NCBI GenBank assembly: GCA_030637775.1
Contig: DAOWFY010000125.1
Location: 1 to 10,934, forward strand
Direction: 5' to 3'
DNA: 10,934 bases
Source: DAOVGU01 sp030637775 [NCBI: bacterium]
GTDB lineage: Bacteria; Ratteibacteria; UBA8468
Shown piece by piece: positions 4,658 to 10,066 of this stretch. The position numbers and the translations under genes are program-made. Each line of letters opens with the position of its first letter. Position 1 is the first letter of the stretch. The notes under the pieces are model-generated. The model was given only the letters and a program-made list of their open reading frames with translations, was not told the origin of the DNA and did no database searches.

Positions 4658-6280
4658 TCATTCCTCCTTCCGGGAGACAATCTTTCCTCCGAAGAGATCC
4701 AGAATTTTCTTGATCTTTTTCTCCTCTTCTATTGTCAGCTCCCTTCTCGGGGATAGTTCAGATGAATCTGTACCTTCTTCCCTGTCCCCATAGGCAGTCT
4801 CTACGATAAAGTCCCTTGCGAATCTCCTTTTTAATATCTCCTCAATGATTTTTCTGTTCTTTTCCACCATTTCTTTATGAAAACGCAAATCTTTTCTAAA
4901 TTCAATGATCATTGAGCTATCTTTAACTTTTTTGATCCTGCCTTCTTGAAGGCAGGCTTCCAGTGGTCTCTTTTTCTCTTTAATCTCCTCCAGGATCAAA
5001 GGCCAGGCTCCTTTTATCTCTTCGTCACTTATAGGATAGGAGATTTCAGACTCCTTAATCTTGGGTTTGTCAATGGATTCAGTCGATTCCTTTCTCGGAA
5101 GCGACTCTTCTTTCTTCATCCCATCCACCGGATGGGAACTCCCCATCCCGTCCACCGGACGGGAGCCCTCCCTACCCGGTTTTTTCTTGGTAAAATCCTT
5201 TATCAAGGAGAGGAGGAAGACCTCCGAGACAATAGAGGCTGACTCCTCCCTTTCCACCCTTCCTTTAAATAGGGAGATTCTTTCTATAATCTGGAAGAGT
5301 TCCTCGGAAGAGAAATTTTTGCCCTGGTCTTTTAGGATTCGTTGGGAATCGACATTTACATTGAGAAAAGGGGAAAGGGAGGAGCTTTCCTTTGTCAGGA
5401 GGATATTGCGGAAATGGCCAAGAAGACCCCCAAAGAAGGAAACCATGCTTTTTCCCTCGGTTGTCAATCCGTTAATGATAGCAAAGAGGGAAGGAGGATC
5501 ATTATTGACGATCGTTTCAACAACCTTAAAGAATACCTCTTCCTCCACCAGACCAAGCAGACTATTCACTTCAGAGACACTAATCCTATCTTTGTCGGTA
5601 AAGGAAACGAGTTGATCTAAGATGGAGAGAGCATCTCGCAAAGAACCGGCGGAAAAAACCGCCATTCTTCTCAATGCCTCCTCTTCTGCTTTAATTCCCT
5701 CTCTTTCAGCAATATTCTTTAACTGGGCAAGTATATCTGAGGTCTTGATTGCTCGGAAGTCAAAATGCTGGCAACGCGAAAGGATTGTCGGAATAACCCG
5801 CTCTGGTTGGGTGGTGGCAAAGATAAATTTGATATGAGCCGGTGGTTCCTCCAGAGTCTTTAAAAGGGCATTAAAGGCCTCCGTGGTAAGCATATGTACT
5901 TCATCAATAATGTAAATCTTATACCTGCTCTTTGCGGGAATGAACTTTACATTCTCTCGTAACTGTCTAATCTGGTCAATTCCTCGGTTGGAAGCACCAT
6001 CAATCTCTAAAACATCTGTGCTACTTGCCGCAGTAATCTCTTTGCAAAGATCACAGGTGTTGCAGGGATCCGCGGTTGGCCCTTTCTCGCAATTAAGCGC
6101 TTTGGCTAAAATTCTGGCCATCGACGTTTTACCTACCCCCCTTGGCCCAGCAAAGAGGTAAGCGGAGGCAATGCGCTTGGTCGTGATCGCATTGGTCAGG
6201 GTTCTGGTAATATGCTCCTGCCCGATCACTTCCTCAAAGTTCTGTGGTCGGTACTTCCTCGCCAAAACAAGATAAGCCAT
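4658..6280 (-). CDS. dnaX: DNA polymerase III subunit tau (with possible gamma product)
   Basis: This 540-residue protein is the clamp-loader ATPase that assembles the sliding clamp and links polymerase to helicase. Domain I shows Walker A GPRGVGKT at 45-52, zinc-binding C64, C73, C76 and C79, Walker B IIDEVHML at 124-131, sensor ATTQPERV at 155-162 and the SRC arginine finger at 168-170. Domains II and III extend to about residue 365. Then comes a low-complexity linker with KKK (365-367) and two copies of xxPVDGM (375-379 and 384-388). A tau-specific C-terminal region of about 120 residues follows. The ATG has AAGGG upstream. The linker contains a palindromic 27-bp tandem repeat and sits just after an A6 run that could allow -1 frameshifting. 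It lies 15 bp after rmuC and 1 bp before recR. Confidence 0.97.
   Translation of the reverse strand: MAYLVLARKYRPQNFEEVIGQEHITRTLTNAITTKRIASAYLFAGPRGVGKTSMARILAKALNCEKGPTADPCNTCDLCKEITAASSTDVLEIDGASNRGIDQIRQLRENVKFIPAKSRYKIYIIDEVHMLTTEAFNALLKTLEEPPAHIKFIFATTQPERVIPTILSRCQHFDFRAIKTSDILAQLKNIAEREGIKAEEEALRRMAVFSAGSLRDALSILDQLVSFTDKDRISVSEVNSLLGLVEEEVFFKVVETIVNNDPPSLFAIINGLTTEGKSMVSFFGGLLGHFRNILLTKESSSLSPFLNVNVDSQRILKDQGKNFSSEELFQIIERISLFKGRVEREESASIVSEVFLLSLIKDFTKKKPGREGSRPVDGMGSSHPVDGMKKEESLPRKESTESIDKPKIKESEISYPISDEEIKGAWPLILEEIKEKKRPLEACLQEGRIKKVKDSSMIIEFRKDLRFHKEMVEKNRKIIEEILKRRFARDFIVETAYGDREEGTDSSELSPRRELTIEEEKKIKKILDLFGGKIVSRKEE
5117..5170 (-). repeat. Two tandem 27-bp palindromic repeats inside dnaX, in frame
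   Basis: Unit 1 (5117-5143) contains an 8-bp-arm palindrome at 5119-5137 (core CCCATCC-acc-GGATGGG). Unit 2 (5144-5170) contains one at 5146-5164 (core CCCGTCC-acc-GGACGGG). The 27-bp period equals nine codons, so the insertion keeps the dnaX frame and encodes repeated PVDGM peptides in the linker before the tau-specific domain. A third copy lies between two tRNA genes at 9962-9988. Confidence 0.85.
5172..5201 (-). promoter_or_regulatory. Candidate -1 frameshift (gamma-forming) site in dnaX
   Basis: On the minus strand, AAAGGA (5201-5196) resembles a Shine-Dalgarno. Ten nt later comes an A6 run (5185-5180) read as AAG AAA AAA CCG. A slip of -1 on this run reads ACC GGG TAG, stopping at 5174-5172 and giving a protein of about 369 residues that ends at the domain III boundary. 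The palindromic repeats starting at 5164 could form the downstream stem-loop. The spacing of SD-like element and slip site, and the stop right after the slip, parallel E. coli dnaX. The run is preceded by G, however, so it is not a perfect A AAA AAN heptamer in frame. Confidence 0.4.
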
Positions 6281-8518: not shown

Positions 8519-8605
8519 CGGAGAGGGGGAGATTCGAACTCCCGAGACCTTTCAGCCTACGCGATTTCCAGTCGCGCGCACTCGACCAGACTATGCGACC
8601 TCTCC
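8519..8605 (-). tRNA. tRNA-Ser(GGA), copy 1
   Basis: An 87-nt class II tRNA. The acceptor stem GGAGAGG/CCTCTCC is perfect with discriminator G73. The anticodon stem CGCGA/TCGCG encloses CTGGAAA, giving anticodon GGA. A long variable arm with a GAAA loop and the T arm GGGAG-TTCGAAT-CTCCC are intact. CCA is not encoded. A 17-nt copy of its 5' end lies upstream at 8655-8671. Confidence 0.96.
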
Positions 8606-8623
8606 CTTTCTTGAATCAGGGGT

Positions 8624-8654: not shown

Positions 8655-8671
8655 GACTATGCGACCTCTCC
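8655..8671 (-). repeat. 17-nt duplicate of the tRNA-Ser(GGA) 5' end
   Basis: GGAGAGGTCGCATAGTC (minus strand, 8671-8655) is identical to the first 17 nt of tRNA-Ser(GGA) at 8605-8589, and also to the first 17 nt of the second tRNA-Ser(GGA) at 10813-10797. It ends in non-tRNA sequence, so it is a remnant. It encodes the last residues (GEVA) and the TAG stop of the DUF1284 gene. Confidence 0.9.
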
Positions 8672-9094
8672 TCTTTTTAATTGCATCTCTTTACGCCAGC
8701 TTTCTCGTAGTTTAAGGTAATAGGTGCAGACCTCTCGCCAACCGCATTCTCCACAGATCTTAATTAGAAGAGAGAAATTTAATTTTTCCTTAATCCCGGA
8801 AAGGAGAGTCTGGGAGGGAATCTTTCTGCCCTTTTTTAGACCCAGAATCTTTAGCACCCTTCGATCCACTGCCCTCGTCCTTTTAGCAGACTTTTTTCCC
8901 TTCTGACAGACTCCATCGAGCTGATAGGGGCAGACCTTACAAATATCATCGCATTCATCAACAACTTCGATGGAAAAGTTACCCTCCACCTCCATCTTTC
9001 TCTTCATCTCTTCCATCTTTTTAATAAATTCCGGGCTATATCCTAATCCCCGAAAACCCTGAAGGCAGAGGAGGTGATGAGCCCTTATTTTCAT
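8657..9094 (-). CDS. DUF1284-family cysteine-rich protein
   Basis: This 145-residue protein of unknown function opens with the DUF1284 signature KIRAHHLLCLQGFRGLGYS (residues 2-20). It has conserved H6, H7 and C10, followed by cysteines C48, C52, C55 and C63 (CDDICKVC...GVC) and a second cluster C114, C117 and C123 (CGECGWREVC). This pattern would suit metal or Fe-S binding, but no function is established. The ATG overlaps the bioY stop as ATGA, so the pair is translationally coupled; no strong separate Shine-Dalgarno is seen. The last four residues (GEVA) and stop codon lie inside a copied fragment of tRNA-Ser, so the native C-terminus has probably been replaced or trimmed. The domain itself appears complete. 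Confidence 0.8.
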   Translation of the reverse strand: MKIRAHHLLCLQGFRGLGYSPEFIKKMEEMKRKMEVEGNFSIEVVDECDDICKVCPYQLDGVCQKGKKSAKRTRAVDRRVLKILGLKKGRKIPSQTLLSGIKEKLNFSLLIKICGECGWREVCTYYLKLRESWRKEMQLKRGEVA

Positions 9095-9699
9095 CTATCT
9101 ATCTCGCCATTATAGGACTTTTTAGGTAGAAGAGAAGCAGAGATGCTGGTAGCCAAGAACGCCTTGAAGAGATCTCCGGGAATAAAGGGTAAGACAGCCA
9201 TCACAACTATTTTAGAAAGAGTTGCTCTTGTCAAAAGGAAAAGCCAGAAGGCGCCAGAAGCATAGATAATCAAAACTCCAATGAGCATTAACTTCAGTTG
9301 AGGCCAGAAGAACCTATTTCTTATCTTTCTGTCAACCCGACCGCCAATAAATAAGGAGGCAAGGATAAAACCAATGAGATATCCGGCAGTAGGATTAGCA
9401 AAAAACGTGAAGCAGGAAAGGGAACTCCAGCCGGCAAACCAGGGGATTCCCGCGATCCCGAGGAGAAGATAAATTGCCATAGATAATCCCCCAAAGAGCC
9501 TTCCTAAGAAAACACCGCTTAAAAGCACCCCAAGAACCTGTCCGGTAATTGGCACCGGTGTAAAGGGCAAAGGAATCCTTATACCAGCTAAAAGTCCTGT
9601 ACAAACAGCCATTCCAAAGCAGAGGCCTATTTTATAAAGAGCCGAGAGGCTTTCCCTCCAGAGGAATAGTTCTAACCGTAAAGACTTAGCCTTTTCCAT
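9091..9699 (-). CDS. bioY: Biotin transporter BioY (ECF S component)
   Basis: BioY is the membrane substrate-binding protein for biotin and works alone or with an ECF energy-coupling module. The protein is 202 residues with about six hydrophobic segments (roughly 24-40, 53-70, 74-85, 104-119, 136-157, 163-190). Family motifs are PFTPVPITGQ at 45-54, GIAGIPWFAG at 81-90, PTAGYLIGF at 103-111 and PGDLFKAFLA at 174-183. The ATG at 9699 is chosen because AGGAGA (9706-9711) precedes it. The in-frame extension to 9777 is translated from a duplicated tRNA fragment and a GC-rich repeat-like spacer. No ECF ATPase or T component and no biotin synthesis genes are nearby. It overlaps the DUF1284 gene by 4 bp. 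There is no clear promoter between the upstream tRNA and bioY, so it may be read through from the tRNA unit. Confidence 0.93.
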   Translation of the reverse strand: MEKAKSLRLELFLWRESLSALYKIGLCFGMAVCTGLLAGIRIPLPFTPVPITGQVLGVLLSGVFLGRLFGGLSMAIYLLLGIAGIPWFAGWSSLSCFTFFANPTAGYLIGFILASLFIGGRVDRKIRNRFFWPQLKLMLIGVLIIYASGAFWLFLLTRATLSKIVVMAVLPFIPGDLFKAFLATSISASLLPKKSYNGEIDR

Positions 9700-9719
9700 A
9701 GATAATCTCCTTTTCAATT

Positions 9720-9749
9720 TTTCTAAAGCTTGCGGAGAGAGGAGGATTT
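9720..9749 (-). repeat. Partial copy of the tRNA-Ser(CGA) 3' end plus flank
   Basis: These 30 nt match 9864-9893 with one difference (C at 9729 versus T at 9873). The matching block contains the last 17 nt of tRNA-Ser(CGA) (T-arm 3' side, acceptor, discriminator) and 13 nt of its 3' flank. It lies just before the bioY ribosome-binding site and is in the same orientation as the tRNA. Confidence 0.9.
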
Positions 9750-9863
9750 CTTCTCCCTCGTCGCTTTCGCTCCTCATCCGAAGCCGGCCACCCTCACTGT
9801 CGCCTCATTACCTTCGGCTTTTCGTGCACAGCACGCGTTCGGGTTGGCTTCAAATCCTATGCA
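9750..9863. other. GC-rich 114-bp spacer between the two tRNA-Ser 3' ends
   Basis: No credible gene is seen. The stretch is visibly richer in G and C than its surroundings. It contains a short hairpin, CGTGC-aca-GCACG (9823-9835), and inverted arms GAAGCC (9780-9785) / GGCTTC (9846-9851) and CCGAAG (9778-9783) / CTTCGG (9812-9817). With the flanking direct repeats it has the form of a very small inserted element or the remnant of one. Confidence 0.6.
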
Positions 9864-9893
9864 TTTCTAAAGTTTGCGGAGAGAGGAGGATTT
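9864..9893 (-). repeat. tRNA-Ser(CGA) 3' end and flank, second arm of a 30-nt direct repeat
   Basis: This is the arm belonging to the intact tRNA-Ser(CGA). It matches 9720-9749 at 29 of 30 positions, 144 bp away in the same orientation. The match covers the tRNA 3' terminus and 13 nt beyond, the type of segment used as an attachment site by tRNA-targeting integrases. Confidence 0.9.
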
Positions 9894-9962
9894 GAACCCC
9901 CGGATCCGTAAAGGATCAGCGGTTTTCGAGACCGCCCCAATAAACCACTCTGGCATCTCTCC
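9877..9962 (-). tRNA. tRNA-Ser(CGA)
   Basis: An 86-nt class II tRNA. The acceptor GGAGAGA/TCTCTCC is perfect with G73. The anticodon stem GCGGT/ACCGC encloses CTCGAAA, giving anticodon CGA. The variable arm GATCC-TTTAC-GGATC is a perfect 5-bp stem. The T arm GGGGG-TTCAAAT-CCTCC has one G-T pair. CCA is not encoded. It follows tRNA-Arg after a spacer made of a palindromic repeat. Confidence 0.96.
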
Positions 9963-9988
9963 ATCTCATCCACTGGATGAGAACTCTC
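9962..9988 (-). repeat. Third copy of the 27-bp palindromic repeat, between two tRNA genes
   Basis: The palindrome CTCATCC-act-GGATGAG (8-bp arms with the flanking T/A, 9964-9982) sits in a unit that matches the dnaX copies including the flanking CAT and AACTC. It takes up almost the entire 30-bp spacer between tRNA-Ser(CGA) and tRNA-Arg(GCG). Confidence 0.82.
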
Positions 9989-9992
9989 CAAG

Positions 9993-10066
9993 CACGCCCA
10001 GGCGGACTTGAACCGCCAACCTACAGGTCCGCAACCTGTCGCTCTATCCAGTTGAGCCATTGGCGC
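9993..10066 (-). tRNA. tRNA-Arg(GCG)
   Basis: A 74-nt tRNA with D arm GCTC/GAGC, anticodon stem ACAGG/CCTGT around TTGCGGA (anticodon GCG) and a perfect T arm GGCGG-TTCAAGT-CCGCC. The acceptor GCGCCAA/TGGGCGT has a G-U pair at 1:72 and an A-G mismatch at 6:67; the discriminator is G. CCA is not encoded. Its 5' end is 13 bp after the stop of the LURP-one-like gene, so both are probably on one transcript. Confidence 0.85.

What the first reader, a model, noticed from the sequence alone, without database searches (positions are those of the whole stretch)
9962..9988. Compensatory covariation among three copies of one palindrome
The third copy lies between tRNA-Arg and tRNA-Ser. The cores are CCCATCC/GGATGGG, CCCGTCC/GGACGGG and CTCATCC/GGATGAG. 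At two arm positions the copies differ, and each change is matched by its partner base, so all stems stay perfect with 3-nt loops. Two independent compensatory changes point to selection for the hairpin, either as a transposition substrate (REP-like) or as RNA structure, rather than for the peptide. In the tRNA spacer the hairpin might also guide tRNA processing.
Basis: seen in the sequence. Interest (0 to 1): 0.7.

Follow-up and report, generated by a model that had tools for sequence, protein, structure and literature searches.

The report
Tiny hairpin inserts inside bacterial genes
The hairpin between two tRNA genes is one of about twenty copies of a 27-letter DNA element that has spread through this uncultured bacterium's genome, mostly landing inside genes, where it adds nine amino acids and usually leaves the gene readable.

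Summary
The three palindromes are real (0.01 expected by chance) and belong to a dispersed family. A sequence-only model finds 21 copies in this genome, 24 in a congener, 4 and 4 in two other genera of the family, and none below E=0.11 in 31 other genomes of the class. The unit is a 27-nt insert, GGAGGGCTCCCGTCCGGTGGACGGGAT, lying 5' of a host GGR. Relatives lacking it at the same places (aspartokinase, a SudB-like gene, DnaX, PolA, this tRNA spacer) indicate mobility. In this genome 20 of 21 copies lie in open reading frames. Frame use is biased (p about 5e-4), so the insert is probably translated and filtered as peptide. Arm covariation is strong (98.6% paired against 93.8% shuffled); one orthologous PheT copy differs by a matched double change. 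Template switching could produce this without selection for a hairpin. Best reading: an RPE/REP-like very small mobile palindrome, without the GTAG/CGTC tag and without a linked RAYT. The mover is unknown. I found nothing supporting a role in tRNA processing.

The parts
9963..9989 (-). 27-nt element, copy 3, in the spacer between tRNA-Arg and tRNA-Ser (stem 9964-9982, loop 9972-9974); GGAGAG of its head repeats the first six bases of tRNA-Ser
   Evidence: present and identical in G001, absent from the same spacer in G003, where the spacers differ by 21 nt net
5145..5171 (-). 27-nt element, copy 2, in frame in dnaX (REGSRPVDGM stretch)
   Evidence: absent from DnaX of G001 and G003; G002 not inspected there
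5118..5144 (-). 27-nt element, copy 1, directly in tandem with copy 2 in dnaX (SSHPVDGM stretch)
   Evidence: absent from DnaX of G001 and G003
4658..6280 (-). dnaX (DNA polymerase III subunit gamma/tau), host gene of copies 1 and 2; they lie between Pfam domain DNA_pol3_gamma3 and DnaX_C
9876..9962 (-). tRNA-Ser(cga), downstream of copy 3
9992..10066 (-). tRNA-Arg(gcg), upstream of copy 3

Best explanation
The palindrome is one copy of a family of very small, non-autonomous mobile elements. The unit is 27 nt: a GGAG-type head, an 8-bp stem with an NGT loop, and a final T. It inserts just 5' of host GGR sequences. Shown: dispersed copies, relatives without them at the same places, exact 27-nt size at three coding sites, and position inside open reading frames. 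Because the unit is nine codons long and its consensus is open in all six frames, insertion into a gene adds a short peptide and the gene usually stays open, as with Rickettsia palindromic elements and intragenic REPs. Inferred: spread as single-stranded DNA, the hairpin being recognised by a HuH/Y1-type or other unknown nuclease that cuts at the GGR/YCC side; the stem kept perfect partly because only perfect hairpins move and partly by template-switch repair of the arms. The copy between the tRNA genes is a tolerated insertion at the 5' end of tRNA-Ser, not a processing signal.
For: Copies: 19 exact to the degenerate pattern; 21 by a sequence-only model in G000, 24 in G001, 4 in G002, 4 in G003, none below E=0.11 in 31 class genomes. 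Sites without it: aspartokinase site 1 empty in G001, G003, G004, G005, G007, G012 and filled by 27 nt in G002; site 2 filled, by 27 nt, only in G000 of 8 aligned. SudB-like gene: 27 nt in G000, none in G002. DnaX units absent in G001, G003. PolA: 31 residues in G000 where G002 has 4. tRNA spacer without it in G003. Conserved hosts. The best solved homologues lack the inserts of the aminotransferase, PolA and aspartokinase. Covariation. Frame bias.
Against: No mover is identified: no copy lies beside any of 12 of 13 Y1_Tnp genes. Transposition was not observed; presence and absence could in part be deletion. At aspartokinase site 1 the same place is filled in two genera and empty in their relatives, so loss or repeated insertion must be assumed. 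The target duplication is weak: the head/right-flank association is p=0.007 over all distinct flanks but p=0.07 when the long type is left out. The tRNA spacer of G003 is not a clean 27-nt difference (21 nt net). One host, a sirtuin-like gene, is broken.
Confidence: 0.72

Rival explanations
1. A true REP of the RAYT system: the Y1 (TnpA-REP-like) transposases of this genome recognise the GGAG head and hairpin and move it as ssDNA.
For: G000 has two Y1_Tnp genes in open frames of over 300 aa, and all five element-bearing genomes searched have at least one. Head plus hairpin resembles REPs; on the other strand insertion lies 3' of YCC and the element ends in CTCC, which resembles IS200/IS605 logic (inference).
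Against: No palindrome copy beside any of 12 of 13 Y1 genes. G004, without the element, has 4 Y1 genes. The head is GGAG or AAAG, not GT[AG]G. Three of the genes (L038, L040, L041) end in what looks to me like a DnaA-type helix-turn-helix (no domain scan run); the subclass with such C-termini is reported without REPs nearby (PMC6006769, passages seen).
Confidence: 0.25
2. Paired arm changes reflect replication template switching (hairpin self-correction), not selection for structure; the element may be mobile or merely dispersed.
For: The stem is short with a 3-nt loop. An orthologous PheT copy shows a matched A-T/G-C difference. The GyrA copy has G-C where the others have C-G. The mechanism is documented (PMC8794818, abstract and one section seen; further quasipalindrome papers seen only in a listing).
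Against: 9 of 53 copies carry only G-T wobbles and 3 carry mismatches, as expected if some changes come one at a time; two of four shared sites show single changes. In PMC8794818 loops of 3 nt are rarer among instantaneous compensatory changes than overall, 3.5% against 6.1%. It does not explain dispersal.
Confidence: 0.4
3. Functional RNA hairpin in mRNA and in the tRNA spacer (processing or stability signal).
For: The stem folds at -10.7 to -14.2 kcal/mol. Single-sided changes are more often G-T (10 cells) than C-A (3) in the orientation that, in G000, mostly matches the mRNA.
Against: The same tRNA pair lacks the hairpin in G003. Only four sites were seen shared between genomes. No Rfam match beyond tRNA in the window or in seven loci. 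RNA z-scores on the transcribed strand are only -1.3 to -2.0; the untranscribed strand of copy 3, the one such strand folded, gave -3.1.
Confidence: 0.05
4. The insert is removed or bypassed after transcription (intron-like or ribosome-bypass hairpin), which is why it is tolerated in conserved domains.
For: It sits in conserved proteins, in PolA just before the stretch aligned to Taq residues 654 onward, and is frame-neutral at the sites mapped.
Against: Reading frames are non-uniform (17, 1, 8 in the three sense frames; p=0.004 on those alone against GGRR phases), which suggests the peptide is made. The consensus is open in all six frames, so no removal is needed.
Confidence: 0.06

Closest known systems
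Rickettsia palindromic elements (RPE), Ogata 2000/2002 (papers not read; seen as described in PMC10969869, passages)
   Same: Palindromic, dispersed, inserted in frame in unrelated genes, adding a peptide
   Different: RPEs are given there as about 150 bp; this unit is 27 nt, with a longer form (roughly 65-80 nt) in some copies; other sequence and head; other lineage; no CGTC end tag
GTAG- and CGTC-tagged REPs, including intragenic ones (Di Nocera 2013, PMC3733652: abstract, one section and passages)
   Same: 20-40 nt, stems of 8-9 bp in CGTC families, complementary arm variants and G-T pairs, double inserts, many hosts in DNA replication and repair
   Different: Tag is GGAG or AAAG; loop 3 nt (CGTC loops 4-5); here 20 of 21 copies are in ORFs whereas most REPs are intergenic; pairs seen here are direct, not inverted
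REPIN/RAYT system (PMC3116915 and PMC6006769, passages)
   Same: Non-autonomous hairpin repeats proposed to move as ssDNA
   Different: Singlets or direct tandems, not inverted doublets; no Y1 gene found with copies beside it
Small dispersed repeats (SDR) of cyanobacteria, Elhai 2008 (not held; recalled, cited in PMC3116915 and PMC4390886)
   Same: Very small repeats with precise insertion at a particular sequence (recalled; SDR5)
   Different: Other sequence and target (SDR5 inserts inside HIP1); other organisms

Membership tests
REP (RAYT-associated) | Dispersed 20-60 nt palindromic repeat | tested here: met
   21 copies in G000, unit 27 nt
REP (RAYT-associated) | GT[AG]G tetranucleotide at the foot of the hairpin | tested here: not met
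   Head GGAG/AAAG, 3 nt from the stem
REP (RAYT-associated) | Mainly extragenic | tested here: not met
   20 of 21 G000 copies in ORFs, 17 ORFs, 15 of them with a Pfam family, one broken
REP (RAYT-associated) | RAYT gene flanked by copies (REPtron) | tested here: not met
   12 of 13 Y1_Tnp genes inspected in loci of 1.8-3.3 kb, including all 9 of the element-bearing genomes; none has a copy
REP (RAYT-associated) | Single-strand cutting by the cognate Y1 enzyme | not testable with these tools
   needs biochemistry
RPE (Rickettsia palindromic element) | Palindromic insert in frame inside protein-coding genes, absent from homologues | tested here: met
RPE (Rickettsia palindromic element) | Sequence family of Rickettsia, CGTC end tag | tested here: not met
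   No CGTC at an end; the exact 24-nt form hit only two members of this family and one Dehalococcoidia-labelled MAG in the genome collection, besides the window's own genome
MITE | Terminal inverted repeats plus target-site duplication of fixed length, matching an autonomous element | tested here: inconclusive
   GGA-type direct repeat only; association p=0.007, or 0.07 without the long type; no autonomous partner sought beyond Y1_Tnp
SDR (small dispersed repeat) | Very small mobile repeat with precise sequence-specific target | tested here: inconclusive
   Insertion 5' of GGR at the filled sites mapped, but the empty host sequence is GAA at one of them in G001 and G003; the SDR paper itself was not available

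The most novel reading that the evidence does not exclude
A mobile hairpin whose unit length is nine codons and whose consensus is open in all six frames, so that it colonises the coding part of a genome rather than the intergenic part. It would be moved by an unrecognised single-strand nuclease cutting at GGR/YCC, and would be a natural, genome-wide source of in-frame nine-residue insertions in essential proteins.
Probability: 0.3. Interest if true: 0.7.

Novelty: new variant of a known kind. Interest (0 to 1): 0.5.

Why it matters
Intragenic palindromic elements are best known from Rickettsia and from scattered intragenic REPs. Here nearly every copy in the genome is in a reading frame, the unit is only 27 nt, and close relatives without it give near-exact boundaries. 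That makes it a clean system to ask how a hairpin too short to encode a mover spreads, and how conserved proteins absorb a nine-residue insertion. It also cautions against reading paired arm changes as proof of selection on structure.

Tried and rejected
RAYT as the mover: searched PF01797 and inspected flanks; no link. One Y1 locus in G001 (L040) has a similar-looking hairpin (arms TCCCGTAT/ATACGGGA) about 105 nt from the gene; the matching G000 spacer lacks it, so it is not counted. Rfam: only tRNAs in the window and nothing in seven loci. tRNA processing signal: rejected because of G003. In B4_bin.23 the core lies in a larger multi-hairpin repeat; common origin or convergence was not settled. 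Removal by splicing or bypass: disfavoured by frame bias. The first frame test used a wrong phase map for the antisense frames; one search corrects it and the conclusion stands. The coding context printed placed some G001 copies at the wrong locus; one search mends this except for one. Two looks for the empty PolA site of G002 printed nothing; one search found it. The phylum of the organism was not determined. Elhai 2008 and the Ogata papers are not held and were not read. Paper searches for the element or its like; no listed title or abstract start names this element (listings only, apart from the papers cited).

Limits: whole-genome model searches score at most 150 first-look candidates per genome. 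The seed copies came from a pattern that allows mismatches at only two of seven pairs; R1, used for the count, is sequence-only. Short-read contigs may break at the longer copies (PolA of G001), so counts are lower bounds. Copies in ORFs were judged by stop-to-stop frames of 150 aa or more (one shorter, the sirtuin-like gene); 7 copies of 53 fell outside. Of 40 host ORFs scanned, 33 have a Pfam family at 1e-3 and 7 have none, so some of the latter may not be genes. One G001 copy (C266:4300) could not be told from its identical twin and was dropped from the frame count. Three orthologous pairs were counted once there; the broken sirtuin-like host was kept. 'Short' and 'long' were told apart by a text rule on the flanks. 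Names SudB, sirtuin, BioY and Mfd are my reading, not a named hit.

Full report
Observation. The window holds exactly three matches of CYCRTCCNNNGGAYGRG, at 5120-5136, 5147-5163 and 9965-9981, against 0.01 expected in shuffles. The third is in the spacer between tRNA-Arg(gcg) and tRNA-Ser(cga), both read on the minus strand. The first two lie in dnaX.

Copy number and range. The genome (G000, 1.397 Mb, 177 contigs, 83.5% complete) has 19 exact matches to that pattern. Of 61 genomes searched with the pattern, 10 have a match: G000 19, G001 (same genus) 22, G002 and G003 (same family) 3 each, and six of the 26 distant genomes 1-2 each; none of 31 others in the class. The pattern read backwards hits five genomes once each. 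A sequence-only model (R1, built on the 19 own copies) finds 21 copies in G000 at E below 0.003, 24 in G001 at E below 0.03, 4 in G002 and 4 in G003; one further G000 and two further G001 matches lie between 0.19 and 0.33. In the 31 other class genomes nothing scores below E=0.11 and nine weak matches lie between 0.11 and 1. A structure model, trained on these same copies, gives no further strong copy. An exact 24-nt form hit 32 stretches in three genomes of the genome collection, from which the window's own genome may be left out.

Anatomy. Oriented, the consensus is GGAGGGC TCCCGTCC NGT GGACGGGA TGGRG: a purine head, an 8-bp stem, a loop NGT, then T and a GGR that at the mapped sites is host sequence. 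Some G001 and G002 copies, and two in G000 (PolA and one more ORF), carry a longer form with C-rich and G-rich flanks, roughly 65-80 nt. Direct tandems occur with periods of 27 nt (dnaX), 24 nt as I count it in the uracil-DNA glycosylase of G001 and 19 nt in RecO of G001, where the neighbour is a TCCTATCC variant.

Covariation. Over 53 copies, 41 have all eight pairs Watson-Crick, 9 have only G-T wobbles and 3 have mismatches. The pair at columns 12/22 is G-C 28, A-T 24, G-T 1. The pair at 10/24 is C-G 38, T-A 8, T-G 5, C-A 2. On the 36 distinct sequences, 98.6% of cells pair against 93.8% in shuffles, and 21 cells are changed on both sides against 7.9 (0 of 500 shuffles reach either); the counts of pairs with double changes and of pair types are less special, reached by 43 and 42 of 500. 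Slid controls fall to 37-58% paired. Relatedness of copies inflates such scores. The PheT copy is the clearest single case: same site and flanks in G000 (C132) and G001 (C69), arms CCCATCC/GGATGGG against CCCGTCC/GGACGGG. The other three shared sites: RecJ (G000/G003) differs by one mismatch, aspartokinase (G000/G002) by one wobble, and the tRNA-spacer copy is identical in G000 and G001.

Insertion evidence. Aspartokinase of G000 holds two copies. At the first site G001, G003, G004, G005, G007 and G012 are empty, G002 holds a 27-nt insert and G000 a net 18 nt. The host sequence there (GGACGGGAA in G001) itself matches the right arm, so a 9-nt slip after a 27-nt insertion would explain the 18. 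At the second site only G000 of eight aligned sequences is filled, by 27 nt. SudB-like gene: 27 nt in G000, none in G002. DnaX: the two window copies are missing in G001 and G003; G002 was not inspected. tRNA spacer: G003 has the tRNA pair without the hairpin, though the spacers differ by 21 nt net, not a clean empty site. PolA: 31 residues in G000 where G002 has 4, a difference of 27 residues, and Taq polymerase has 6. The aminotransferase has 7 more residues than its best solved homologue there; the best solved aspartokinase lacks both inserts; the uracil-DNA glycosylase alignment is ambiguous at the insert.

Coding context. In G000, 20 of 21 copies lie in open frames, in 17 ORFs, 15 of them with a Pfam family: among them dnaX, polA, gyrA (near the start; the weakest copy), recJ, ftsK, pheT, aspartokinase and a lipoyl ligase; one host, sirtuin-like, is broken downstream. 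In the other genomes hosts include IF-2, RecO, a uracil-DNA glycosylase, an Mfd-like helicase, apolipoprotein N-acyltransferase, a TonB-type and a sigma-54-type protein; six of 24 G001 copies are outside such ORFs. Much of the window is coding, so this is no clear excess; the point is the lack of avoidance of genes. Element and gene run the same way in 19 of 20 G000 cases (p=0.0009 against the strand bias of GGRR sites). Over 31 short inserts (34 less three orthologous repeats) the six gene frames are used 17, 1, 8, 1, 0, 4 against 6.8, 4.0, 8.1, 3.7, 3.5, 4.9 expected from the phases of GGRR in 30.7 kb of coding DNA (p=0.0005; sense frames alone p=0.004). The favoured peptides are GGLPSGGRDG and EGSRPVDGM; the rare sense frame reads RAPVRWTGW. 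This argues that the insert is translated and filtered.

Mechanism. Insertion lies 5' of GGR at the filled sites mapped; read on the other strand, 3' of YCC with the element ending in CTCC. At aspartokinase site 2 the empty G001 and G003 sequences read GAA there, so the target is not strict. The head/right-flank likeness is significant over all distinct flanks (p=0.007) but not without the long type (p=0.07). This resembles single-strand (HuH/Y1) transposition but does not prove it. Y1 genes: 2 in G000, 4 in G001, 1 in G002, 1 in G003, 1 in the B4_bin.23 genome and 4 in G004, which lacks the element. Twelve of these 13 were inspected and none has a copy in the 1.8-3.3 kb held. Paired arm changes may be kept by selection for mobility, by template switching, or both; the data do not separate these.

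Known kind. Intragenic REPs and RPEs are established (PMC3733652, abstract, one section and passages; PMC10969869, passages), including hosts in DNA replication and repair and double inserts, as here. The element lacks the GTAG or CGTC tag, lacks a linked RAYT and is not mainly extragenic. I file it as a new variant of the kind 'very small intragenic mobile palindrome', and not as a member of REP or RPE.

Noticed in passing
L013 about 690-745 (G000 polA): A second palindromic insert in the same PolA gene: GTAG head with two hairpins (GGGTCGGATTCATCCGACCC, GGGCTTGATAAATCAAGCCC), REPIN-like; that part of PolA also matches several other places in G000 and G001, some in frames with stops.
   Followed up: partly
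L221 (G001, Y1_Tnp locus), 1382 on + and 1414 on -: GTAGGGG followed by hairpin-like sequence twice in a locus with a Y1 transposase gene, a candidate classic REP association in the congener; placement relative to the gene not worked out.
   Followed up: no
window 9720-9749 and 9864-9893: A 30-nt direct repeat (97%): the 3' end of tRNA-Ser(cga) with its flank recurs inside the start of the ORF 9091-9777 (BioY-like by my reading).
   Followed up: no
window 8589-8612 and 8655-8678: A 24-nt copy (88%) of the 5' end of tRNA-Ser(gga), read on the minus strand, lies beside the gene.
   Followed up: no
L121-L150 and L197-L218 (Dehalococcoidia-labelled B4_bin.23): 22 model matches at E up to 0.01, 20 of them with a stem found by pattern, inside a larger, different multi-hairpin repeat; shared origin with this family is possible.
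   Followed up: partly
alignment A3 columns 5, 10, 24: A head base covaries with the stem: A5 goes with T10 in 11 of 13 copies and G5 with C10 in 38 of 40; either two subfamilies or a second, alternative pairing GRG-CYC.
   Followed up: no
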